From Thoreauomyces humboldtii (Eukaryota; Chytridiomycota; Chytridiomycetes; Spizellomycetales; Powellomycetaceae): a stretch of DNA of 20,725 nucleotides. Positions 2,360 to 20,269 of this stretch are shown here, one piece after another. The notes under the pieces are model-generated. The model was given only the letters and a program-made list of their open reading frames with translations. It was not told where the DNA came from and ran no database searches. Location: contig JADGJA010000379.1 in NCBI GenBank assembly GCA_027596035.1, forward strand, positions 1 through 20,725. Direction: 5' to 3'. The translations under genes were made by a program, and so were the position numbers. Numbering within the stretch: the first letter of the stretch is position 1; every line of letters starts with the position of its first letter.

Positions 2360-4473
2360 TTACAGGGATAGGGGATCAGTTGGCTCGGTGCTCGAAGAAG
2401 CAAGCGGTGCGTGCTGAAGTTGAGACGGCGCCGATTGACGCTTCCTTTTGAGGTCTGCGGTTGCGTGCAGCTGCTCAGGAGTCAAAGACGCTGCCTTCCT
2501 CTGTTTCTTGATGGCCGCGTACATGTTCGTGAGGGCTGTATCGGTCATCATGCCGGCAGGCCAGAAATTTATGATTTTGTTGTACACTGCGGTACGGACG
2601 CGACTTGGCTTGTATTGTCCGGGTTTGTTATTAACGCGACTATACCGGAAACAGTTGAGAAAGGTGTACGTTCGCTCGTCTTTCCACCCCTTCGTCGACA
2701 CTCACTTATAGTTGTTGTCTAGATCCGCGGTTTGCCACTCTGCAGACACGATGTCCCAGAACTGTGTCCGTAAGCTTTCCGTCCAACGAAACTTCTTGGG
2801 CAGCTCGATCGGAGCCACTCGCAGCTCAGGGAGCTCGGGAATTCCTAATGCAGTGTTGATATCTGTTTGAAACTTCTGATACTGTCCGGCGATTTTTTTC
2901 TTCATGTTCTCGAGTTGCCGCATATATACAAACGACCTGCATTCTCGCTGGAATTTAAAGTAGGTCAGGGGCCTTCACCAAATAGCAGAGTTATGAGCTC
3001 GTGTGTCAAAATCATGCATACTTCCAGATGGGCCCTGTTCAACGGGATTGCCCTTCCCACTCGCGCAATAAAGTCGTCATCGAGCACATCCAGTTGCGAG
3101 GCTGACCAAGCGCACCGACGGAGAAGTTTTCTCAGTGTACGCGACATGTCGCCATCTGTTTCGAAGGCTAGAATTGAGTGAGGCGAATTAGCAAGTAAGC
3201 CAAAATTTCAGCCATTTCGCCAATCAAAAACTCACGACTTGTTCGTGCACACTCCTCCATCTCGAGCATCTGCGCTTCCAGTTGATTGGGCTATCGGGCA
3301 TCCACAAGATTAGTTCAGGCAGACTCGTCACTATGTTTGCCAAGCACGCACCTTTGCCGTGCCACGTGCTTGCCGGGGCTTCTTGACGACGTCAGGGTTC
3401 GGAACTGCTGCCGCTGTGCCGACAGGCGCCGACATGCGTGGTGGCTTTTTGGGCTTTGCTACAGCTTCGGGAGCTACCTCAATCGAAGCTGACAATCGCG
3501 GTTTTTTCGTCTTTTTCGCAACACGACGTGGGCTAACATCTGCTTTCGCGGGTTGTGAGGGGGCCGCAATTCCGGCAAGTCTTGTTGCATCGGAAAGTGG
3601 ACGATCGTCGTCTGATATCTCTATAAGATCCATTACAATTTTGGAACCCGCCCCGGTACCAGCCGAGACTTTGGTTGATGGTTCCTTAGCGTTTCCTGAA
3701 ATTGTGCGATCCCGTTTTTTCGCAGGTCCGTCTGGACTGGTGATTTCGCCATTCGACGTTGGGTGAGATGCAACAATTTTGACAGGCTTGCCACTCTTCG
3801 ACGATACGCTCTTCTTGGAAGTGGGCGAGGTCGTGGAGGGTTTCGCCGCGGATGTCGCGATCTCTGGCGGGGGTCCGGTGCTGTGGACTGATGCCGTAGT
3901 GCGTTTTGGCTTCTTACGTGGCAGCCCAGCCTGAGGTTCCTCGAAGGCCAACTCGGGCCTTGCACTCTTCCCTCCGCTTTCCTTGGTCCGTCGCTTCCCC
4001 GACTTCGTTTTTGCAAGCGGGATCGTTGATTCCTCAGTCTCCTCAGGTTGGGTTCCGGGATTGTCCCTGAACCACGTTTCGACACCTCCTCGCCAGACCA
4101 TCCATGGGGCTTCCTGGTGATGACCGATGGGCCCGACCTCGCTGTAGAAAAGATCGCTATCGTCGATGAAGTCGTCCTCCACATCGTACTCTCCGACATC
4201 GGAACCATCGTCGTCGGTCCGAAGCTTGAGTGCCTTCTTCTGCGCTGGGTGGTTCATGAGCTGGTCCTCAGCGGCCGACTCCTCGCTGGACGAGCCTTCG
4301 GATCCTGGTTTGTCATCATGAGGTGCTGACAGTATTCCCAGCTCGACCTTCCGTTTCTGCAAGTCCTTCTTGAAATTGAAAATGTTGTCCTCTGGGGTCT
4401 GTGAGAGTTTCCAGTGCAAGCGAATGGAGTGCTGACTTGTGGTCGGGGGTGTTGTATCGTCCAAGGAGTCCAT
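2360..4473 (-). CDS. HPC2/ubinuclein-like HIR histone chaperone subunit
   Basis: Five exons on the minus strand (4473-3352, 3290-3236, 3167-3022, 2947-2706, 2639-2360) give 614 residues. Near residues 93-138 lies the Hpc2-related domain, with YDVEDDFIDDSDLFYSEVGP and then WMVWRGGVETWF. This is the segment by which Hpc2 and ubinuclein contact the HIRA/Hir WD-repeat subunit and histone H3. A long Ser/Thr/Lys/Pro-rich disordered region follows. From about residue 492 (KKFRWTESLRTQFWDIVSAE) to about 580 the sequence matches the ubinuclein middle domain, including INFWPAGMMTDTALTNMYAA. The family works in replication-independent H3/H4 deposition in the nucleus. The four introns (61, 68, 74 and 66 nt) keep one frame; the third was placed at GTATGC after RAHLE because other donors break the frame. 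It is divergent from the 88-residue gene. Family assignment is strong and exact junctions are moderately sure. Confidence 0.85.
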
Positions 4474-6137: not shown

Positions 6138-7775
6138 ATGGCATTTCCTACACTACAGCGTATCCTAAGTTCAGTCGGCACCAGTGCAAGGTCGTCGTCA
6201 TCGCCAGCAATACGCAGATCTTCACTGCTATCAGCTTCCTTTCCTTGCTCGGATAAGCTCGCATCCCTCCGTCTTTTCGCCACGAACTGTCATTTCCGCA
6301 CAATGTACCAGTCGGCTCCAGCGACGCAGGGAATGGCCTCGGTCGACTTCCGTAGCGATACAGGTATCGTCTAAATAATTTTAGAGATTTTCAGCAGCGA
6401 AAAGGGACTGATATAGTGATCCTCGCAGTCACAAAGCCAACGGACGCAATGCGCCAAGCAATGCTCACGGCCGAAGTGGGCGATGATGTTTTCGCTGTAA
6501 GCGGGCGAGCCCGGAAGTGAGGAGACATCAAAGAATAGACTCTGATCAAAAGTCCCGACGTGTCCGCTGCAGGAGGATCCCACGATTCAAAAGCTGCAGA
6601 GCTATATCATCGAACTGACCGGACATGAAGCAGCACTCTACCTTCCAAGCGCGACGATGTCAAATCAGGTACCCTTCGAAGATGTCCACGAAGTGTGTAG
6701 TGCTCGGATCGCTCATTCACACGTGTGATCATAGATCGCCGTGCGGACGCATCTTACCCAGCCACCATACTCTGTAATTTGCGATCACCGCGCGCACGTT
6801 CACAACTACGAGTCTGCTGGGATCTCGTTCTTCACAGGCACGGCGGGTTCATATCCTCCGGTTCTACTGGTCGTTTCCAAATCCTGAACTTGTTCTCACG
6901 CATTCAGGAGCTGCACTGATCCCAGTCGCTCCGGCATCTGGAGAGGCACATCTGACTCGTGCTGCTGTAGAAAGGCACCTGGTTCTGGATGATGACGTCC
7001 ACCATGCACCTACAAAGCTCATTTGCATGGAGAACACGCTCAACGGGGAGGTAACATCAGCCGGTATTCTTGTTGGACGCATTCCGCTAAGAAGGCTGAC
7101 TTTGCGGTTCAGGTTGTACCCCTCGTCAACATCGCGGAGGTGACTGCCCTTGCCCACGAAAACAACTTGAAGGCGCATCTTGACGGAGCCCGGTTATGGA
7201 ACGCATCCGCCAAGACTGGTGTATCCATCAAGGAATACTGCAGCCACTTCGACTCGGTACGAGGCAAGTTCAATCTCGATGCTGGCTCAATCTTGATACC
7301 AATCGGCACTTTGATCTCTCTTCAGGCTACGCTATGTCTTTCGAAGGGGCTAGGATCACCCGTGGGATCCATGCTTGTCGGGTCGAAAGCTTTCATCAAG
7401 AAAGCGACGCACTACCGCAAGATGTTCGGCGGCGGCTGGCGGCAAGCAGGACTCCTCGCTGCCGCTGCTCTTCACGCATTGGAACACCATCGTCTCAATC
7501 TCCCGATCGATCACGCCAACGCTGCTTACCTCGCTGAAGCCCTGGTCGGACTTGACGCGGGCTTTACGCTCACAAAGTCTGTCGACACCAACATGGTCTG
7601 GGTCGCTTCTCCCGTCACAGCCGACGAGCTGGCTGCGGAACTTGGGAAGCATGGGATCAAGATTTTTGGAGGATCTGAGCGGGAGATCCGATTCGTAGTA
7701 CATCTGCAGACTCCTCGAAAGGAATGCGAGAGGCTTGTGAAGATAATCGGCGACTTTGTCAAGAGTCGTGCGTAA
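6138..7775 (+). CDS. GLY1: L-threonine aldolase (PLP-dependent)
   Basis: Seven exons (6138-6363, 6429-6496, 6573-6668, 6735-6846, 6908-7050, 7113-7256, 7326-7775) give 412 residues. The enzyme cleaves L-threonine or allo-threonine to glycine and acetaldehyde using pyridoxal phosphate. Family landmarks in order: [70 protein letters not shown], and [13 protein letters not shown] with the cofactor lysine at about residue 270, then FGGGWRQAG. All six introns (61 to 76 nt) preserve frame. The first Met gives a leader rich in Ser, Arg and Leu that looks like a mitochondrial presequence. Initiation at internal Mets at 6303 or 6333 would give a cytosolic form close to the usual fungal length, so dual targeting is possible. 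Function is confident; the start is uncertain. Confidence 0.93.
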
Positions 7776-7974: not shown

Positions 7975-9371
7975 TTACATAGCATCGTAAAGGTTCCTGC
8001 GGAACCGTTCCGCAAAGGTGTCTATGTCGTTCCCATTAGCGAGTTCTACTGCGTCTCGCGGTAGCCGGTTCATAGCGTAGGCCGGATGTGCGGCTCCTAC
8101 AATCTCCGATGGAGATTCAACGAAGCGGAAGTCAGTTCCGTCTTCATCGGTCTCTGTTTGTTTATTGACACGATGAGTTGGCATATATCGATTTTACGAA
8201 ACTTTTCGGCAGGTCCTTACCAGTGAGAAGCTCGTCCCAGGCGAAGAGTAAGGTATCGGTGGTTGCGCCGAAGGGATTGAAGTCGAGAAGCCAGACCGCT
8301 CGGTTCCGTTGGTTCAAGTATACATCGAACACGACTGGACAGGGTAAAGAGTCTTGTGGTGAGAACCAAGCTGGCATACATGGAAAACAGAAACGCTCTT
8401 ACAGTCAGCATCTGGGAACCGTCCTCGGATTTTCTCGTTGAAAAATGTTTCTATGCACGTCTGAATCGCGTCGGCCTCCTCGAGAAGGAACGAATAGTAG
8501 TTTGCCACATCGCGCTGAGTGATCCCTGAGGCATTCCATGAGTCAAGTGCTACGATCGGGAACATCTACCACCTTCGTTCTGAACTAACCTATAATCTTT
8601 CCCTCTCTGACAAAACACCTGAACTCCATGGACGGCAAAAGCTCATACCACTTCCGCAGAACCAGATGAAACCGCTCCGGTCGTTGCGGGAGCAGCCCTG
8701 AAGATCCTTCAGCAGACCCGATCGGCGGAGCATCCGTGGCGCATCCATCAAAGGCGTGCGCAAGGTCATGGGACACGAAATCACTGCTCTTCAGCAACAG
8801 AAAAACGTCGGCCGGGTTCACGCACTTCAGCGTGGATCCAGTCGCGACCCAACATGCATCCTTGGGGGAACTCCAGTCGAGCTTCGCGAACACGGCACCT
8901 CCCATGTCTTCGATGGCAGCCTCGATCAGTGCATGGAGCTCTGGAAAGGTCGGGACAGGTATCGCGTCCTTCTCATCTTCGTCGCTGGAGTCTTCTTCTT
9001 CTTCTGGTTTATGGTCCGGGTCCGATACACGCAGACGGGCGAGCATGTCCTGCTTCCATGTCGCCTCGGTGCCATCGGAAAGCTCCGTGATGAATGATTC
9101 GTCTTCGCTGTCGCTCAAGGAAGACTCCTGTTGCTGACCTCTGCTGCAGGAAGAGGTCAGCAGTGAGGTAGAACCCGAAAAGCGTACCTCGCGTCGTAGC
9201 TCACCAGTCTGCAGGCAGCACGATACCGTCCGCATTAAGATACTCGACAAACTCCTCTGACAGGGGGATGACCACGCTCTTGAGCGTAGAAGACCGGAAG
9301 GTGGGGTACCAGTTGGCGAAGGCACAGTTCTGAACCTGTTGAACGGTTACTGTGGGTAACTGGAGAGGCAT
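7975..9371 (-). CDS. CDC123: CDC123/D123 family protein (eIF2 assembly factor)
   Basis: Five minus-strand exons (9371-9205, 9143-8590, 8525-8403, 8352-8221, 8153-7975) give 384 residues. CDC123 is an ATP-grasp-fold cytosolic factor that binds eIF2 gamma and promotes assembly of the eIF2 heterotrimer. Matching features are NCAFANWYPTFR near the N-terminus, VVIPLSEEFVEYLNADGIVL, FAKLDWSSPKDACW, FRCFVREGKIIGITQRD, and FDVYLNQRNRAVWLLDFNPF with ATP-grasp acidic residues near 291 and 305. An acidic insert (EEEEDSSDEDEKD) lies in the first third, as in relatives. The start at 9371 was preferred over an upstream in-frame ATG at 9422 because family members begin close to this motif. The third intron is only 50 nt and ends in AAG; the others are 61 to 67 nt. 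It shares a divergent promoter region with the DUF4112 gene. Confidence 0.9.
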
Positions 9372-9715
9372 TGCCGGCGAGGTTTCTGGTGGTCGGTTCG
9401 CTTCGCGGGTTAGGCCGGGCATGTCGCAGGTCGCAGGAAAAGACTTTGGCGGGTGAGTTTATACAAGAGGCGGAGGATTTAAGAAGTCTTGAGACCACCC
9501 GTCGCTATCGCTTCCTTTGTAGTCGATGTAAGGTACAGAACCTGCAATTGCGAGTGCGCGCAGGAACACCGCTCCGTGCGAAAAAAGAAGGTCGCAAGTC
9601 CGATGACTCATCGCAGTCGATGACTCCCTTTCCATCGATTCCTTCGTCGGCATCGAATCCGCCTATATTCACATTTCTCACTAGAGTTTCCTGTATACTT
9701 GCCACGCAGTCCATC
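9372..9715. promoter_or_regulatory. Shared divergent promoter region, CDC123 / DUF4112 gene
   Basis: These 344 bases lie between two divergent start codons. The plus-strand frame of the DUF4112 gene stays open upstream through most of this region, but the extra translation is Arg/Ser-rich with no conserved motif, so it was treated as untranslated. No TATA element or other site was recognised. Confidence 0.5.
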
Positions 9716-10509
9716 ATGCTCCTCGCAAGACCCATCTACTGCTCGCCATCAGCACCGGCCCTCTCCTCCTCCACCACGCTCATCCACCCCGCTCCTCGCC
9801 CATCAACCAACTCCGCATTTTCAATCATCCGCCAGACCTTCCACTACATCCGTCAGGGCTTCGCGTTCGCATCCAGAAGTCTCACCTACGTCTCCCACTC
9901 CCTCGCGCTCGGACTCAAGACCGTCGCTCGTCCCCTCACCATCCAACAGGTCAGGCAACGCATCTCCATGTTCCGCGTACCAGTGAGGTGGCTCGAGAGC
10001 GTCGTCAAGATCCCTTTCGTGAGGGTTCGCTTGGGTTTGACCACCGTCATCGGGCTCGTGCCGTTCCTGGGTGTCGCCGTCAGTGCTGGATTCGCCGTGA
10101 GTCTATCCGTTTTTGCAGGCCTTGGACGTGAAGAATGGAACGTGACGATTTCTTTGGCTTTGCCTTCCTTTCCTTAGCTTTATCCGATCATACTGGCTTC
10201 GCAAGTGCCTGACCTTCCGCAGGATGTACTACCGAAGATGATCGGAAACATGTTCCTCGGTGCTGGACTCGGTCTGATTCCGTTCGTGGGCGGTCTCATC
10301 GCAAACTTTTACAGGCCAACCTGGAGGAATCTGCGGTGAGAAAGGCTCGGAGTCATATTTTCGGAGGGCAGAGGACGCTTGCATGTGTTTGCTCATCTTC
10401 TGATCTCCTCTGCGCCAACTTTAGACTCCTGGAGAGTTGGGTCGGGCGGTTGGAAAAGACGGCGATCAAGGGGCATCGAATCCCGCTGCCTGTTGCCGCG
10501 ACGTATTGA
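9716..10509 (+). CDS. DUF4112 family membrane protein
   Basis: Three exons (9716-10096, 10178-10335, 10425-10509) give 207 residues. The DUF4112 signature is clear: LGLTTVIGLVPFLGVAVSAG, an aliphatic segment LYPIILASQVPDLPQDVLPK, then MIGNMFLGAGLGLIPFVGGL and FYRPTWRNLRLLESWV. The two hydrophobic G-L-(I/V)-P-(F)-(L/V)-G hairpins probably insert in a membrane. The N-terminal 70 residues are Ser/Pro/Arg-rich and could be a mitochondrial or chloroplast-type presequence equivalent; the location is unproven. The first intron (81 nt) begins GTGAGT after GFA, and the second (89 nt) splits the Arg codon of RNLR and ends TTTAG. Both are supported by exact restoration of the conserved motif. The biochemical function of DUF4112 is not known to me. 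Confidence 0.85.
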
Positions 10510-11098: not shown

Positions 11099-11844
11099 TT
11101 ACAAACAACGCACCTGTCTTGACTGTCGCGACTTTGCTCCAGGGCCACCCTGTTCCTCCTCGTCGTCCTCCCGCCCCCTCTTTCGCTTGTCTGAACGAGT
11201 CGGTCAATCAGTCGCAGTCTTCGAAAGTGCAACTCACTGCCACAGAAAACTTCAACCTCGCCTGCGTAATCCTTGGTGAAGTAACTCGCCTGCGCACCAT
11301 CTGGAACGTTGGAGAATCCCTTGTACGTATCCCTCTGTTGTTCTGCGCGCATCGTCTCCTCCCTCTGCCTCGCACCCCATCCGCCCCGTCCCTCATCGTA
11401 ATCATCCCTGTGCTCATTCCTCTTCCGAGGTTCCTCCCATCCTTGTACCCTGGATCCAGATCCGTCCTGACGATCCGCTCGTCGAGCTTGGTCCCGTTGA
11501 TGTATTTCACGCAGTCCAGGGCGTCCTCTCGGTGGTAGTACTCGACGAAGCAGAACCCGCACAGCGTCTTCTTGAATCGGTCAAGACCCATGATGATGCG
11601 TTTGATCTCTCCGCATTTCGAGAAGACCTCGTGGATCTGTTCTTCGGTGGTGAAGAAGGAGAGGTTGCCGATGTAGAGGGTCGTCGACCGAGAGATCTTC
11701 TCGAGTTGCTCCTCGTATGAAACCTGTGGGGAGAGTGGTGAACAACGGATCGTATCGAGCACGGGTAAAGGCCCGATCCTCTACCTCGTGCTTCCTATCG
11801 ACGTAAACGGAAGGTGCCCCGAGCGACGGTACTAGGTCGGCCAT
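11099..11844 (-). CDS. CBC2: Nuclear cap-binding protein subunit 2 (CBP20), frame break in C-terminus
   Basis: The minus-strand first exon (11844-11785) encodes [20 protein letters not shown]. After a 61-nt intron (11724-11784), the second begins [20 protein letters not shown]. The RRM shows RNP2 (LYIGNL, residues 36-41) and RNP1 ([10 protein letters not shown], about 75-84), then [17 protein letters not shown], all diagnostic of CBP20, which binds the m7G cap with CBP80 in the nucleus. The next conserved piece, [18 protein letters not shown], lies in another frame. Either a base is missing near 11411-11425, or a 41-nt intron (11408-11448) is removed at the cost of the conserved [11 protein letters not shown]. 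Downstream, a likely 47-nt intron (GTGAGT...TTCAG, 11191-11237) leads to an acidic tail [17 protein letters not shown] and a stop at 11099. Family is certain; the C-terminal model is tentative. Confidence 0.82.
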
Positions 11845-12324: not shown

Positions 12325-14043
12325 TCAAACATACGTATCTACTATCTGCGTCCATCGTACACCATCACCTGACAAAGGGCAAAAGGGTTAGTCCTCCGCT
12401 ATACAAGTGGTCTTCACACTTTACGTACCCTTAGGTGGAACAGGACGAGGTATCAAAACGGTCCACCATGGCCTTAAGATCCGAAAGCCATCTTCAGCAC
12501 GTGAACGTCGTTCTCGCTTTCGCGGAACCGACAGACTCACCGATACTCGATGTTGAAGAAGACACGAAAATTCCCTGCTGTCCCCTGGTCGTATTCGTTG
12601 AAAAATGGCTGCCGAAACAGAAGGCGTGAGCTTATAGACGAGACAAAAAGAAACCGCCAGGAAGCTCGTCAGGACGTCCACTCACGTCGCCTGTCGTTCG
12701 CGCCACCATGTGAGCGATCTGGTTGGTATAATACTCTATGGTTGTTTGCGCTGTCGCAATCAGGTAGGTGTGCCAAGCAAGGAACCCCCCCATCGCGAAA
12801 GCCATGGCGACGGCTAAGACGAAACCAAACACGAATCCCATGCGAGCCTGCTCGTATGGCCATGCGTACTGCGCAGCACAACGCCAACGTAAGGATCGAG
12901 TGCGAGATAAAACGAGTATCCTCAAAACATGATGCCCTCGTACCTTGTCAGAGTTCAGAATCTCGCGGCGGAACATGCGTATCGAAATCATCGAGTAGTA
13001 CATGCAGGCGGTAAACATGTAACACAAGAAGAGATAAAAGTAGCGATGGTTGCCATGTCCAACGCTAAAGTAACGAGGCGAGACATAAAGAACGTTAGCA
13101 ATTTCGAGATCGTTCTACTTGCACAGTTGCTTTTCTTCGAGCACAATCTTCTTGTTCTTTACCAATTATGTATCCACTGTGCTCGATTGCAGGACGCAGC
13201 AATGAGGAGCGAGAAAACGATTGGTGTTTCCCTCGTGGAGTACGTACGGGACAATGGTGATCCATCTTCATGACACACCTGCGATCAACGAACTGTCAGC
13301 GTCCGGAATTGCCGCTGTCGGTAAGGCAAGGAGAAAGGCGCACCGACGACAGACACTGCAGTGATGCGTTCGGTCAGGTTTGGGCAGGCGACCTGTGGCG
13401 AGGCACCTGGTCAATCAAGCCTGCTCGAATAACTCCTCCGGGATCGCGCTCTTGCAAAACTCACACTTTTTGCAGAACCTCTTCTTTGGTGCAGATCCGT
13501 CCGGCACGACCGTTCGTCGATCCCCGTGAAGTTCCTCCCGCAGCTCGAACATCAGCTCACTGTTCTCCGCTGGCACTGGTAGATGTTCTGCATCCTGCCA
13601 AGGTGGAAGCCCGGTCAATTTTCGAGTCGAGGACGTTCGTTCATCTGCTGCGTCCGACTTGCCTCCTCGACTTTCGGGGGCAGTCCCGGGTCCGTCCTGA
13701 CCGCCAGCCAGTAATGCACGAAGATGCATACAAGCACGTAGCTGCTCCAGACAACAGAAGCAGCCCACGCGAGCCTGCTCGCGCCGTCGTTCCCGGGATA
13801 CAGGTACGGAAGGTTGACTGTGTAGTACACGTAGGCGACCCACGAGATGAGCGATACGGCGATGATCACGAATGCGGGCCCTGCAAAGTACACGAATCCG
13901 TTGAAGAATCCGGCGAGACAGGTCTCCAGGCGAACAAGTGACGACCGATAAAGTATGCGCATTCCCTCTCGTGAACTTTCGAGGACATGGACCGTCGGCG
14001 ATGCTTGGGTGCACATCATGGGGAGGGTCGAATCAGACTGCAA
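12325..14043 (-). CDS. DHHC-type protein S-palmitoyltransferase
   Basis: Ten exons are proposed on the minus strand: 14043-13672, 13594-13465, 13392-13344, 13278-13248, 13176-13163, 13064-12944, 12847-12686, 12608-12541, 12472-12429, 12368-12325 (344 aa). They assemble the full cysteine-rich domain: RFCKKCRLPKPDRTHHCSVC, then [20 protein letters not shown] and GNHRYFYLF. DHHC is at about residues 190-193 (13251-13262). Two N-terminal membrane segments, YMFTACMYYSMISI and VFGFVLAVAMAFAMGGF complete the four-pass layout; LIATAQTTIEYYTNQ is the conserved TTxE motif. The enzyme attaches palmitate to cysteines of membrane proteins. Exon 5 is only 14 nt. The last intron has an ideal ACTAAC branch site. 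The first splice (here 13595-13671) is uncertain, since several GT/AG pairs fit. Start at 14043 is the first Met; 14019 is also possible. Confidence 0.87.
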
Positions 14044-14323
14044 TCCATCCCAAAGCAGCTAAATTGAGATGATGAGTGGGCTGAGTGTGTGTGTGTCAGC
14101 AGTTTGTACCACCTGCGGAGCCTTTCGGAGGGCTTCCGTACAGAGTTGTTTGTGGAGAGAGAGACTTTCCCCTCCTCGGCCGCTTTGCCCTCCCCGCCTT
14201 CTTTCCCTTGTCCCCTGCTTCACCCTTCTCGTACATCCCTCGACACGAACTTCTGAGCACTGCCCATCCTTTCAAACCCATCACCTCCCTCCCCTCTGCG
14301 AAGTAGTCTAGTAGCCGCCCAGC
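14044..14323. promoter_or_regulatory. Shared divergent promoter region, DHHC / polX-like genes
   Basis: The 280 bases between two divergent ATGs include a (GT)6 run at 14085-14096 and C/T-rich tracts from about 14167 to 14300, typical of fungal core promoters near start sites. No TATA box was seen. The role is inferred from orientation. Confidence 0.5.
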
Positions 14324-16810
14324 ATGCATTTGCTACGTCTTTCACGCACCCTGCCGAAACGCGCAACCGCTCCCCGCCTCAACCTCGGCAATGGCACCCT
14401 GCCTTTGACGTCAAACGTCTACCACCGATCGGTCGCAGCTCCTGGTTCTCTCGTCTCGACTATCGCACCCTTCGCTTCACGTTTCCGTGGGTATTCGGAC
14501 TCCGCAGAAGCCTTGGCCACGCAAGCCGCCCACGAGCCATTCGATGAACCGGTACGAGTTGATCGTTCGCTGACAGCTGACAGCAATCAGCACTGACGCC
14601 CGGTTGCCTTCAAAGCGGATGATTGCTCTGACTGCATCGTCGCCAACAGTACTGGAAAGGTTTGTTGCCCAGCCGGACTCGGAGGACACCGTGCCGACCG
14701 GGGCAGAGGGTGGGCGGCCCCGCAACGACGTTCAACAAGGCTCCCAGGCTGATCGGGAGGTCGGAACGAGGCATCAGAAGCGCACTGTCAGTGTGGAACC
14801 TCACGATGCGCTTGAACAGAAAAGACCTGCTTCCTTTGCTCGAGGTACTGTTGGATCCGGTTCGTGTCCCATTTTCGATAGCGAAGACATGACTTTTGGT
14901 TTACTCACAGCAGCTGTATCCTTGTCTCCTCGAAGCAGACCTGGCGGCCCGAGATATTAGCGAGACAGCAGAGAACGCTCAGGAGCATGCCCCGCCTCTC
15001 ACCGCTCCGGAGCGCCCGGCAAGCTCCGCCAGCACTGTTTTGCTCCAATCTACACGAGTCCTGCTCGAGCAGAAGGTCGCGTTTAAAGGGTCGGAAGCCA
15101 TGAAGTCCCACGATCACGTCCCAGGTACGGAATGGTCAAAGCAATCCCAGTCGTTTGATGTGAGCTTACCATTTTGATGCTCTTGGAAGTTTTCGATAGC
15201 GATGCCACTCCGAAAGACAATCAAAACAATGTGAAAACGGATGCGAAGCATGTTGAAGAACAAGTGACTAACTTTGAGGAACCTCTGTCTCTACCGGATG
15301 CTCACCCGACAGAGCCCGAAGTTTCTGAGGCCGTGGAGGAGCGTGCGATTGTTCCGGAAGCGCCCGAAACTCAAGCTTCTGACGAGACCAAGACTTCCAG
15401 CAAGATGGTGGGCTCGGATGCTGCGTTGGAGAAGACTCGCGAAGCGCGCGAAACTCCTGTGCAGCTCACGAATCAGCAGCTTGCCGAAAAGCTTCGAGGT
15501 TTGCACATCTCTGTCGAGTCTCTATGAACTACTGGTGGAAGCGGAATCAACTGACCCAAGTCTCTTCGAGCCAGCGCAGGCAGCGGCGCCTGGAGTTCAT
15601 CGAGCAACCATCAAGGCATTGAAGACCGGTGCCGACAAAATCGAAGCCGCCAGCGAGCATGTTACGACGGGAGCAGCCGCTTTGAGAGCCGGAGTAACTT
15701 GGATGGTCAACCAACGGATTTTGGATATTCTCGGACGCAGACAGAAGGTATCGCAGCAAGCACACATAGAGAGAAGCTCACTAACTGAGTTCGCTGGTCC
15801 ACACAGGCAAAGTTGAGCCCCAAGCCAGAGCAGGCCAAAGCCAAGCCTGCGGCTGAGAAGCGCAAAGTGAGCCCCAAAGCAGAAACGGACCCGAACTCCG
15901 GAAAGCGCGTTTTTGCTATAACAAGTCTTACGAAAATCGTTGGCTTGGGGTAAGTTGGCATTCCTCCGACGGCAACTTTTCCGAAGGTCGAAATGCTCAA
16001 TGACTTCTTCAGGGCCCGTCGAGCTGAGGAGCTGCATGTTGAACATGGAATCAACGGGCTCGATGACATTGCGGCCGGTAAGCCTGGCAGCGCGCTCCTG
16101 ACTTCCGCTCAGAAGAAGGGTCTTCGCTTCGTGGACGATTTTGAAGCCCTGATCCCGATGGAAGAGACGCTCGAGTGGGAGGTACTGTTATTCAAGACGA
16201 CCGCACAATCTCGGTTCTGGCGATTGACATCCGATTTGATCTTCCAGCCCCGTCTACGCGCCTCTCTCGACATGCTCTCCCTGGAAGCCACTCTCGGCGG
16301 CGGTCATCCGAGAGAGGAGCCTTCCGGTCATCTGGCGGTGTTCGTTACTCGTCCAGGTCTTAAGAAGTGCACCAACCTGCCATTGATGAAAACCATCCGG
16401 GACCGGCTCATCACCGACAAGCTCATCTTCGAGGAGATCTCTATGAGCGCCAGTCGACTCGTGGCCATCGGAAGACTCGATGGCAAGGAGTCGAACCGAG
16501 CCAGACGATTAGTCCTTCAGCTCGAGACTCAGACCTCGCACTGGTTATCATTGTTCTTGTCCACCGGCAGCCAGAAGTTTGTGAATAGGATCCGCAGGGC
16601 TGCAAAGGCGAAAGGCTACAAGATCACGACGAAGGGTATATTTTCATTAGGTAAGGAAGTCCATTAGCAAGAGGTGGGCATTGTAGGCGATGCTGACTCT
16701 TTGCGATGCAAATCGCAGAGACAAACGATGCGGTTGACGTCGCCGACGAGCATGCGTTGTTCCAGCGGTTGGAAATGGACTATCTCCACCCTGCGGAGCG
16801 CACAGCGTAA
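14324..16810 (+). CDS. Family X DNA polymerase-like protein, predicted catalytically inactive, mitochondrial-type leader
   Basis: Proposed exons: 14324-14551, 14616-14844, 14939-15124, 15190-15498, 15542-15747, 15807-15949, 16013-16181, 16248-16650, 16719-16810 (654 aa). The N-terminus (MHLLRLSRTLPKRATAPRLN) resembles a mitochondrial presequence. A long acidic, low-complexity region follows. The C-terminal third has polymerase X architecture: an 8-kDa-like segment (IKALKTGADKIEAASEHVTT), helix-hairpin-helix (ITSLTKIVGLGARRAEELHV, HGINGLDDI), LTSAQKKGLRFVDDFEALIP, a palm with LEATLGGGHPREEPSGHLAV, LSLFLSTGSQKFVNRIRRAA, KGYKITTKGIFSLE, and the terminal YLHPAER motif. The metal-binding Asp pair (usual SGDxDV) reads SGHLAV (H518, A520; 16329-16337), and the third Asp is Val579 (16512-16514). 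The fold is confident; loss of polymerase activity is inferred. The junction near 15407-15545 is ambiguous, and the 66-nt intron 16182-16247 is in frame. Confidence 0.8.
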
Positions 16811-16912
16811 ATTCGGCGTAGATTTTGACATTGTGGAAAAAAGTTGTAGTAGACTCGAAAACAGTGACATGTAGCGTTTGAGCCTTCTGTTCACAGTTCG
16901 TACATACCTATC
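16811..16912. other. Short convergent 3' intergenic gap
   Basis: Only 102 bases separate the stop codons of the polX-like gene and the PBP-like gene, so their 3' UTRs probably overlap or nearly touch. Nothing else was recognised. Confidence 0.5.
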
Positions 16913-18276
16913 TTACGCGTTCAGTGACGTCCGCGAACTCTCCGCGCTCTCCATGAACCTTCTATGTTGCTCCGCCATCCTCTGCTCCAAGGTCTCCTCC
17001 ACCACCTGAGCCACCCTCTCGTCCACAAGACTGCTCAACTCCATCTCCTGATCTCCCTTTTCCGTGATGACTCCCGCCTTCTTGAGAACCGTCACACACT
17101 CGTCCAGGACCTGAACGCTGACCTCCTGGGAATCGGCAGGGTAGGCGACCGTCGAGAACCATGCTTTCACGTCTTCCTCCGGAAGCTTGAACCGCTCGGC
17201 AACGTAGGGGATCGACGCGCCCGTGTCCCGGCCGTCCATGAAGGAGATGGACATGGTTGTGATGACTGAACATCGATGCAAGTTCCAATCAGAGATATTA
17301 TAATCATTTGACAGATACTTAGCGACGGACCTTTGAGCATGGTCTGCAATGCCTTTCCATGAGCCAGTGCTTTCTTCGTCGCCGCGATCATGAACGCTGG
17401 CCATGGCGGCGTGATGTTGGAAAGATGATGAAGTTCCTTGGAGTCATAGTGTGGCTGAAAAAAAAAAATAACACAATGCATCAAGACCGGAAGATCTGCC
17501 AACAGCACGAAACCCATGCGTGTCCCAGTGCCCCCACCTTGGTCATGATCCTCTCCCACAAGAACGCGTCGCAAGTTCCATTCCGCACACCCTCCACCAA
17601 ACCCGTGATGTTCTTCAGAGGAACAAACTCGAAGGGTTCCGCGGGCTCACCGTCCTCCGTCTCCAACCACCCCAACTCGTCCGCGAGGACGAAAGGGATG
17701 ATGTGACTGCCGCTTCCGAACCTCGATATCCCGATCCTCTGTCCCTTCAGAGCCTTCCAGGCTTCGGGTCCAGGTGATTCTGAGGGCGTGCTGGCGTGAG
17801 GTCCGGTGGGAGACGTGGCGATGGACCAGGTCAGTGGACTCGATACGTAGGTTCCGATGATTCGAAAGTTCTGGTCAGAGTTGGAGAGGGCGGCGACGAG
17901 TCCTTCCGTCAGTGCGATGGCGACGTCCAGGGAATCTTCGTTCAGCATCTTGACCATCTGTGGCAAGTCGCGTAGGGACGAAAGGTGAGGTCAAAGGCTA
18001 AGACCCAAAAGTAAAAAGCGGATGACAAGTGCACCGACCTCTCCGGTTCCTACGAACCATCAGAAAAAGGAGTCAGAGGTGAGTACGAGCAACAGGTATC
18101 AAGCTCCTCGGCCGACTCCCCAGATACTAACCTCCTGGGCAGCTGATAATGTCGACCTCAATTCCATTCTCGCTAAAGATGTTCTTGGCCACAGCTTGAT
18201 AGACAGGAGATGAAAAGTGCTCCGGCACGCAGCCTAGACGAATACGCTCGAGTTGGGTAGTTACTTGCTGTGACAT
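16913..18276 (-). CDS. Type II periplasmic-binding-fold protein (NMT1/THI5/SsuA-like)
   Basis: Five minus-strand exons (18276-18132, 18049-18039, 17957-17538, 17454-17331, 17265-16913) give 350 residues. The fold family is shown by IRLGCVPEHFSSPVYQAVAK, the SCPGGTGEMVKML loop, LDVAIALTEGLVAALS, FRIIGTYVSSPLTWSIAT, IGISRFGSGSHIIPFVLADE, FEFVPLKNITGLVEGVRNG, CDAFLWERIMTK and PEEDVKAWFSTVAY. Bacterial relatives bind sulfonates, nitrate or thiamine precursors for ABC transporters. Fungal relatives include the THI5/NMT1 pyrimidine-synthesis proteins, but this sequence lacks recognisable THI5 catalytic motifs, so its ligand is unknown. There is no signal peptide at the chosen Met (MSQQVTTQLERI), suggesting a cytosolic protein. 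Exon 2 is only 11 nt (GAACCGGAGAG), yet it encodes the conserved Gly-Thr-Gly turn. A bacterial origin in the distant past is plausible; the introns show full adaptation to the fungal genome. Confidence 0.82.
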
Positions 18277-18472
18277 GGCGATGGTAATTCCGAAAAAGTA
18301 TTTGCGAGGGGAAAAGTTGATCAGACGTCCCACTTCTCCCCGACGACATTCCCAGTTCAGCAGAGATCAGCTGCAAAGGACCCTTCACCATCCCGTTTCC
18401 CATCGCATACGTGTCCCTTCTACCCTGCATATCCCCGTCGTTCTTTACTGGAACAGATTCGAACCCTTGATC
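18277..18472. promoter_or_regulatory. Shared divergent promoter region, PBP-like / mitochondrial-type protein
   Basis: The 196 bases between the two divergent ATGs must carry both promoters. The plus-strand frame of the downstream gene remains open across it with another ATG at 18275, but that ATG overlaps the PBP-like start and the extra residues are unremarkable. No core element was recognised. Confidence 0.45.
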
Positions 18473-19141
18473 ATGCGTGTCCCAACGTGCCCTCGGCTCG
18501 CCCAGAGCGCCGTCCGACAACCCGCTCTTTTATCCCAGTACACACGTCCACGTCCGGCGTGGCAGTCACCACCGTGCGTCCTAGCCTGCGCGTCTGCTTC
18601 GTACTCCTCCCAATCACCATCCATCTCAGCACAATCATCACCACCAGAACCTCCAGCGACACCATCCAGCGGCTTCCAAATAGCATATTCCGAACGAAAG
18701 GCCGCAGTGGACATGCTGGACGCCAACCCCCAGCACAAGGCCGCGTTTCTCTCAGCCGTGGCAGCAAAGCCAGAGGTCGCGCGTGCCTTCCGAGACCTCG
18801 ATGACTATCTCTTCGCCAAGGGCTACGCTGACCCTCGCAACCCAACCCACAGGCCTGATGAGGAGATCCGAGCTCGAATGGAAGCGGACAACCTGCTGAT
18901 GGAAAAGACGCTGCTCGTGCAGAAACTGCTTCAGGCCCACGGCATCGTTCGCATGGTGGCTCCGACCGAGCAAGCGATCCCAGAGAAATCACATCCCAAC
19001 CATCGCGAGGGAGTCCTGATTGTTGATGCGGCACTGCCGATGCATAAGCTGGGTTTGGAGCCGCTAGCCCCCACAACGCTTTCCAAGCCCTTGCAGTGGT
19101 TCAAATCTTTTTTCATGACGAGCGAGAATACACTGAAGTGA
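18473..19141 (+). CDS. Intronless protein of unknown function with mitochondrial-type leader (222 aa)
   Basis: A single open frame encodes 222 residues starting MRVPTCPRLAQSAVRQPALL. The first 50 or so residues are rich in Arg, Ser, Pro and Ala and nearly free of acidic residues, like a mitochondrial import presequence. After a Ser/Pro linker the rest is charged and mostly helical, for example YSERKAAVDMLDANPQHKAA, RAFRDLDDYLFAKGYADPRN, and ARMEADNLLMEKTLLVQKLL. The C-terminal half has VDAALPMHKLGLEPLAPTTL and ends WFKSFFMTSENTLK. There are no cysteines in the mature part and no clear membrane segment. I do not recognise the family. The start at 18473 was preferred over 18275 because the latter would overlap the neighbour's start. 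It is unusual here in lacking introns. Confidence 0.68.
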   Translation: MRVPTCPRLAQSAVRQPALLSQYTRPRPAWQSPPCVLACASASYSSQSPSISAQSSPPEPPATPSSGFQIAYSERKAAVDMLDANPQHKAAFLSAVAAKPEVARAFRDLDDYLFAKGYADPRNPTHRPDEEIRARMEADNLLMEKTLLVQKLLQAHGIVRMVAPTEQAIPEKSHPNHREGVLIVDAALPMHKLGLEPLAPTTLSKPLQWFKSFFMTSENTLK

Positions 19142-19693: not shown

Positions 19694-20269
19694 ATGCGTT
19701 CAACTGTAGCATTGAACTTGTTTGCGGCAGCGCTACTGATACACACCTCGCTGACTTCTCCCGTGCACAACAAGCCCCACTCGGACACACTGTCGCCGAC
19801 TCCGACTGGATCTGTCGATGACCCTCGTTCCACAGGAGCTCCGAACGGGGGTCCTCCTCAGGGCAATGGACCCCACGGTGACTGGAACCCGCCAATGTTC
19901 AACGGTACTCACGGCGGCCCTCCCGATCGCAACGGGACCCACGGCGGTCCTCCCGGCGGAAACGGGACCCACGGCGGAGCACACGGAGGACCCCATCACG
20001 GTGGCTCTCACTGTGGCGGTCCCCACGGCTGTCACCACGGCGGTGACCGAAACTCCACTCACGAAGGTGGTCCTCACTCGAACTGGAACTCGACGGTTCC
20101 GTTCACCCCCGGCGGTCCCATCAAGAACGAGACGCACCACGATGGCACTGAACATGGTCATCCTCACAATGGGACCAAGCCCGAGAAAGGAGGCGGCAAG
20201 AAGGGTGGCAAGAAGGGGAGCAAGAAGGATGGGAAGAAGGATGGCAAGAAGGACGGTTCGCACTCGTGA
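19694..20269 (+). CDS. Secreted Gly/His-rich protein with NGTHGGPP repeats and Lys-rich tail
   Basis: A single open frame of 191 residues. MRSTVALNLFAAALLIHTSL is a typical signal peptide with a likely cut around residue 19-22. The mature protein is low-complexity: Pro/Gly/His-rich repeats based on N-G-T-H-G-G-P-P at about residues 70-95, then His/Gly blocks with two cysteines (SHCGGPHGCHHGG), and a Lys/Gly/Asp C-terminus with KKDG repeats (KKDGKKDGKKDGSHS). Seven N-x-S/T sequons are present, three of them inside the repeats, so heavy N-glycosylation is likely. Histidine clusters suggest divalent metal binding and the basic tail suggests binding to acidic polysaccharide or nucleic acid; both are inference. 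No transmembrane segment or GPI signal is seen. The TATA box, short leader and AATAAA downstream support a real, perhaps strongly expressed gene. No named family recognised. Confidence 0.82.
   Translation: MRSTVALNLFAAALLIHTSLTSPVHNKPHSDTLSPTPTGSVDDPRSTGAPNGGPPQGNGPHGDWNPPMFNGTHGGPPDRNGTHGGPPGGNGTHGGAHGGPHHGGSHCGGPHGCHHGGDRNSTHEGGPHSNWNSTVPFTPGGPIKNETHHDGTEHGHPHNGTKPEKGGGKKGGKKGSKKDGKKDGKKDGSHS

What the first reader, a model, noticed from the sequence alone, without database searches (positions are those of the whole stretch)
16248..16650. Family X polymerase-like protein with all three catalytic aspartates replaced
The palm region aligns convincingly to polymerase X: LEATLGGG, the SG-x-x-x-V strand, an RR-x-x-x-x strand and the STGS motif. 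But the paired metal-binding aspartates of the usual SGDxDV motif read His518 and Ala520 (16329-16337), and the third aspartate (RRxDIRL in relatives) reads Val579 (RRLVLQL, 16512-16514). The surrounding frame is open, introns are intact, and the C-terminal YxxPxER motif is kept, so this does not look like decay. With a mitochondrial-type leader, it may be a structural or DNA-binding pseudo-polymerase. Loss of activity is inference from known polymerase X chemistry.
Basis: partly seen in the sequence, partly recalled or inferred. Interest (0 to 1): 0.78.

Follow-up and report, generated by a model that had tools for sequence, protein, structure and literature searches.

The report
Chytrid mitochondrial-type dead polymerase X homologue
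A chytrid fungus carries a third DNA-repair-polymerase-like gene whose protein appears to keep the polymerase fold but has lost the residues needed for copying DNA and begins with what looks like a mitochondrial address, so it probably works without catalysis.

The parts
14324..14551 (+). Exon 1: mitochondrial-type leader (first 58 aa: 8 K/R, 0 D/E, ending SRFRGYS)
   Evidence: Model; same residues in NCBI P0001; charge counts
14650..14844 (+). Exon 2 in my model; the NCBI protein reads other residues here (another frame), so about 75-80 residues after the leader are uncertain
14911..15124 (+). Exon 3, linker; the first residues differ from the NCBI protein
   Evidence: pLDDT under 50 for residues 1-308 of P0001
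15190..15498 (+). Exon 4, acidic linker; my acceptor is AAG, and the NCBI protein has the same residues across the junction
15575..15747 (+). Exon 5, helical segment in the place where other PolX carry the 8-kDa lyase domain
   Evidence: Helices in 309-382 and 314-381; no PF14716 match at E<=1
15807..15949 (+). Exon 6, Pro/Ala/Lys-rich stretch and start of the fingers helix-hairpin-helix (KIVGLG)
16013..16181 (+). Exon 7, fingers domain
   Evidence: PF10391, P0001 residues 421-472, 31.7 bits
16182..16247 (+). Intron 7, 66 nt, no in-frame stop: retention would still give an open frame
16248..16650 (+). Exon 8, palm and first part of thumb, with the substituted triad
16329..16331 (+). CAT His at the position of Pol beta Asp190
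16335..16337 (+). GCG Ala at the position of Pol beta Asp192
16512..16514 (+). GTC Val at the position of Pol beta Asp256
16719..16810 (+). Exon 9, end of thumb, YLHPAER motif and stop codon
   Evidence: PF14791 residues 586-646, 51.9 bits

Best explanation
The gene encodes a PolX homologue that should not make DNA by the two-metal mechanism: all three metal ligands and several nucleotide-pocket residues are replaced, and Pfam finds no lyase domain. The fingers (helix-hairpin-helix), palm and thumb scaffold is kept, as are the equivalents of Arg254 and Arg283 (and perhaps Arg183), and the genome has two triad-intact PolX genes besides. I think the protein is imported into mitochondria, loses its leader, and acts without catalysis by holding nicked, gapped or primer-template mtDNA through fingers and thumb while the long flexible N-terminal part positions partners. 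Shown: gene structure, substitutions, sequence and model similarity to PolX, open frame, leader composition. Inferred: loss of activity (from PolX chemistry, recalled), mitochondrial location, DNA binding, partner recruitment.
Against: No orthologue found, so no direct test of constraint. In the wider test, near-invariant active-site positions are kept about as often as others (6 of 15 against 34 of 91, Fisher P=1), so erosion is general; the narrower test (P=0.047) was made after it. Net charge of the last 235 residues is +3, no higher than in the six ordinary PolX measured (+3 to +12). The loop just before the triad (501-510) is the least certain part of the core (pLDDT 59). The confident model used ordinary PolX rows, which favour the PolX fold; alone the protein reaches mean pLDDT 43. 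Some structural alignments run on over residues 339-411 against the 8-kDa part of Pol beta or lambda, so a degenerate lyase domain is not excluded.
Confidence: 0.42

Rival explanations
1. A mitochondrial protein that reuses the PolX fold for a role without DNA, for example as an assembly or ribosome-associated scaffold.
For: Leader; general divergence with the core fold kept; no excess positive charge; a helical segment stands where the lyase domain would be (residues 311-350 at pLDDT 79-88 in the single-sequence model).
Against: Fingers domain and Arg254/Arg283 equivalents are kept. The 60 PDB sequence hits listed of 72 are polymerases, which says nothing about a new role.
Confidence: 0.25
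2. A relic under relaxed selection on its way to a pseudogene, its frame open because decay began recently.
For: No orthologue; very long branch, 2.45; 66 of 106 near-invariant columns changed.
Against: Open for about 325 codons from exon 5 to the stop, where random sequence of that composition would carry 12.7 stops (P about 2e-6); substitutions without selection left 0 of 400 stop-free at 25% identity and 12 of 400 at 60%, over 181 codons; third-position GC 0.64 against 0.45-0.55 in introns. None of this excludes a recent loss of constraint.
Confidence: 0.2
3. An enzyme with altered chemistry in which other side chains near the site bind the metal.
For: Acidic and His side chains lie nearby in sequence (E507, E508, H512 in P0001 numbering).
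Against: The third ligand is Val, and further pocket residues (S180, Y271, F272, D276, N279) are also changed.
Confidence: 0.05
4. Sequencing, assembly or annotation artefact.
For: One assembly only; residues after the leader differ between models.
Against: At least four base changes at three codons in an otherwise open exon; the pattern G-D/E-x-D/E occurs three times in six frames of 14000-17000, never inside exon 8; one locus found with this exon's ORF.
Confidence: 0.03

Closest known systems
Noncanonical prokaryotic PolX (PMC9226535; abstract, one Results section and the Discussion read)
   Same: One to all three triad residues and dNTP-binding residues replaced with the motif context kept; can occur beside canonical PolX in one genome
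   Different: They keep dRP-lyase and PHP exonuclease domains, and the two tested Deinococcus proteins are exonucleases; here Pfam finds no PHP or 8-kDa domain, and the protein is eukaryotic with a mitochondrial-type leader
[quoted passage not shown] abstract and passages seen)
   Same: Mitochondrial PolX; T. brucei Pol beta-PAK has a long Pro/Ala/Lys-rich N-terminal part before the PolX core
   Different: Both are described there as having lyase and polymerase activity
Fungal Pol lambda-like and Pol mu/Pol4-like enzymes (PMC12828229: abstract, one section and passages seen; genome copies C338 and C131)
   Same: Fingers-palm-thumb fold; same genome
   Different: Aspartates intact in the 120 relatives counted and, by eye, in C338; none of the 120 has an acid-free first 58 residues
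ImuB, an inactive Y-family polymerase (named in the Discussion of PMC9226535)
   Same: Works like: a dead polymerase kept as organising subunit
   Different: Another polymerase family, bacterial

Membership tests
Family X DNA polymerase (active) | Three metal-binding Asp in the palm (Asp190, Asp192, Asp256 of Pol beta) | tested here: not met
   His, Ala, Val; Asp in 120 of 120 relatives
Family X DNA polymerase (active) | Fingers and thumb domains | tested here: met
   PF10391 31.7 bits and PF14791 51.9 bits, both over cut-off
Family X DNA polymerase (active) | Palm domain | tested here: inconclusive
   No PF14792 match at E<=1; but aligned by a profile of 121 ordinary PolX over 418-647 (39.4 bits), and its model, made with PolX rows, superposes on Pol beta
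Family X DNA polymerase (active) | 8-kDa lyase domain | tested here: inconclusive
   No PF14716 match at E<=1, while the 120 listed hits carry it; long helices there; yet part of the structural alignments extend over 339-411
Family X DNA polymerase (active) | Polymerase activity | not testable with these tools
   Loss is inferred from chemistry
Noncanonical prokaryotic PolX | Altered triad with conserved context | tested here: met
   definition
Noncanonical prokaryotic PolX | C-terminal PHP nuclease domain | tested here: not met
   No PHP match in Pfam; the protein ends with the thumb
Mitochondrial PolX (Pol beta / Pol beta-PAK like) | Mitochondrial location | not testable with these tools
   Only leader composition

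The most novel reading that the evidence does not exclude
The first eukaryotic PolX lineage that has lost polymerase (and perhaps lyase) chemistry and been kept as a mitochondrial DNA-gap or primer-end binding subunit: a polymerase turned architectural factor, possibly descended from a fungal Pol beta-like gene and not from the genome's Pol lambda-like or Pol mu-like genes.
Probability: 0.25. Interest if true: 0.72.

Novelty: new variant of a known kind. Interest (0 to 1): 0.5.

Why it matters
Dead polymerases kept as working subunits are rare (general knowledge). If true, this extends noncanonical PolX from prokaryotes to a fungal mitochondrion, without the nuclease domain that explains the prokaryotic ones, and gives a way to ask what the PolX scaffold does besides catalysis in mtDNA maintenance.

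Tried and rejected
Orthologue search: residues 320-641 of my model (the 7994 candidates sharing most words were scored, cap reached) returned the protein itself and one ordinary PolX at E 0.53; residues 478-648 of P0001 (1625 candidates, E<=10) returned only itself. These searches need exact shared 5-residue words, so a fast-evolving orthologue could be missed. Database coverage of Powellomycetaceae stays unchecked.

Origin: a tree of 15 sequences over 181 columns splits P0001 plus Pol beta from the rest with support 77, but the P0001 branch is 2.45 and the C131 branch 2.27 long and Pol beta was only a fragment, so long-branch attraction is not excluded.

Other frame or splice restoring the motif: rejected. 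The triad codons lie inside one exon, and the pattern G-D/E-x-D/E has three matches in six frames of 14000-17000, none in exon 8 (one, GDAD, lies in intron 8). Retained intron 7 does not touch the triad. Specific erosion of the active site: wide test negative (P=1), narrow later test P=0.047. NCBIfam gave one match far below its cut-off (24.2 against 426 bits).

Papers: searches for fungal, chytrid, inactive or pseudo PolX were made, and for the genus; they cover open-licence PMC papers only. Judged by titles and starts of abstracts, PMC9226535 (prokaryotic) is the one on the point; PMC12926913 on bacterial polymerases was seen only in a listing. Passages of PMC12362244 and PMC11646218 showed no inactive eukaryotic PolX.

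Full report
Where it is. The window is the whole of contig C311 of a 20.67 Mb assembly. The protein database names the gene's product HKX48_005349 of Thoreauomyces humboldtii, a chytrid of the Powellomycetaceae.

The gene. I built a nine-exon model. Read against NCBI's protein P0001, the leader and everything from DLAARDI onward agree; the 75-80 residues between them differ because another frame is used, and are uncertain. Over residues 320-641 identity is 100%. My intron 3 ends in AAG; the NCBI protein has the same residues across it. Intron 7 has 66 bases and no in-frame stop, so its retention would keep the frame.

The triad. His, Ala and Val stand where 120 of 120 compared relatives have Asp (these are P0002-P0121, the proteins listed from 930 hits, chosen by likeness to ordinary PolX). 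In Pol beta numbering (residue roles recalled), R149, S180, Y271, F272, D276 and N279 are also changed; G179, R183, G189, R254, G274 and R283 are kept. Whether R183 is kept depends on the place of a one-residue gap.

Is the change selective? Of 106 columns conserved in at least 95% of relatives and aligned here, 40 are kept: active-site positions 6 of 15, others 34 of 91 (P=1). Of 23 columns shared also with Pol beta and the C131 protein, the three Asp are all lost and 14 of the other 20 kept (P=0.047). The protein has diverged everywhere; the deepest structural positions have held better than the three aspartates, with little statistical weight.

Is it a living gene? From exon 5 to the stop the frame is open for about 325 codons; random sequence of that composition would carry 12.7 stops. 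Substituting a 181-codon stretch of the C131 gene without selection left stop-free 12 of 400 sequences at 60% protein identity, 3 at 50%, 2 at 40%, 2 at 30% and 0 at 25%. Identity of P0001 to the 14 other tree sequences is 20-26%. I infer that the frame was under selection for most of its history; this does not show selection now. With the exon's ORF as query and E<=10, only this locus was found in the genome.

Other PolX in the genome. The two loci are C338, with CGDVDI and RRLDI, resembling Pol lambda, and C131, with NGDCDV and VDLII (P0003, HKX48_003427), resembling fungal Pol4 or Pol mu (resemblance by eye). Neither start looks like a mitochondrial leader by eye.

Mitochondria. The first 58 residues carry 8 basic and no acidic residues and end in SRFRGYS; 0 of 120 relatives lack acidic residues in their first 58, though many of those may be fragments or have mispredicted starts. 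RGY before S resembles a processing-peptidase site (recalled). No targeting predictor was available.

The N-terminal side of the core. Where relatives have the 8-kDa lyase domain, both models show long helices (309-382; 314-381, of which 311-350 has pLDDT 79-88). Part of the structural alignments nevertheless run over 339-411 against the 8-kDa part of Pol beta or lambda, so a degenerate lyase domain remains possible; I could not place the lyase lysine reliably.

How it may work. Without metal ligands and with a changed nucleotide pocket, two-metal DNA synthesis is not expected. What remains is the fingers hairpin, palm and thumb, with arginines that in Pol beta touch template and primer end (recalled). 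I favour non-catalytic binding of gapped or nicked mtDNA; the charge of this part is no higher than in ordinary PolX, so this is inference.

Known relatives. Among 2,973 prokaryotic PolX, 809 (27.5%) lack part or all of the triad; two tested ones are inactive as polymerases and act as exonucleases through a PHP domain (PMC9226535). Here Pfam finds no PHP domain. Mitochondrial PolX are known from trypanosomatids and are described as active (PMC8375306, passages). The fungal PolX paper PMC12828229 has no occurrence of 'chytrid', 'inactive' or 'mitochondri' in its main text. A search for noncanonical, inactive or pseudo PolX terms listed only PMC9226535.

Verdict. A real and unusual protein: a PolX homologue without the catalytic triad in a chytrid, likely mitochondrial. 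Its conservation beyond this species is unproven, which limits the interest.

Noticed in passing
16182-16247: Intron 7 is 66 nt, in frame and stop-free, so retention gives a second open isoform with 22 extra residues between fingers and palm.
   Followed up: partly
window 17481-17966 (-): Gene on the opposite strand with a Ca3427-like periplasmic-binding-protein domain (PF22384, 51.4 bits), tail to tail with the PolX-like gene.
   Followed up: no
window 18275-19141 (+): ORF with a basic start and no Pfam match; an internal Met (MRVPTC...) would give another mitochondrial-type leader by eye.
   Followed up: no
window 19694-20269 (+): ORF rich in His, Gly, Asn and Pro repeats with a signal-peptide-like start by eye; no Pfam match.
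   Followed up: no
window 3331-4473 (-), 7023-7775 (+), 8585-9325 (-), 9371-10177 (+), 11208-11762 (-): Other ORFs by Pfam: HUN domain below cut-off, beta-eliminating lyase, D123, DUF4112, and an RRM protein that resembles nuclear cap-binding protein 20 (recalled).
   Followed up: no
L001 (G000:C338), near the Pol lambda-like gene: A reading frame beside the Pol lambda-like gene resembles a SpoU-type rRNA methyltransferase (recalled, motif LVLGSEGRGL).
   Followed up: no
P0001 residues 311-350 (exons 4-5): Best-predicted part of the single-sequence model: helices just where other PolX carry the lyase domain; its relatives were not searched separately.
   Followed up: no
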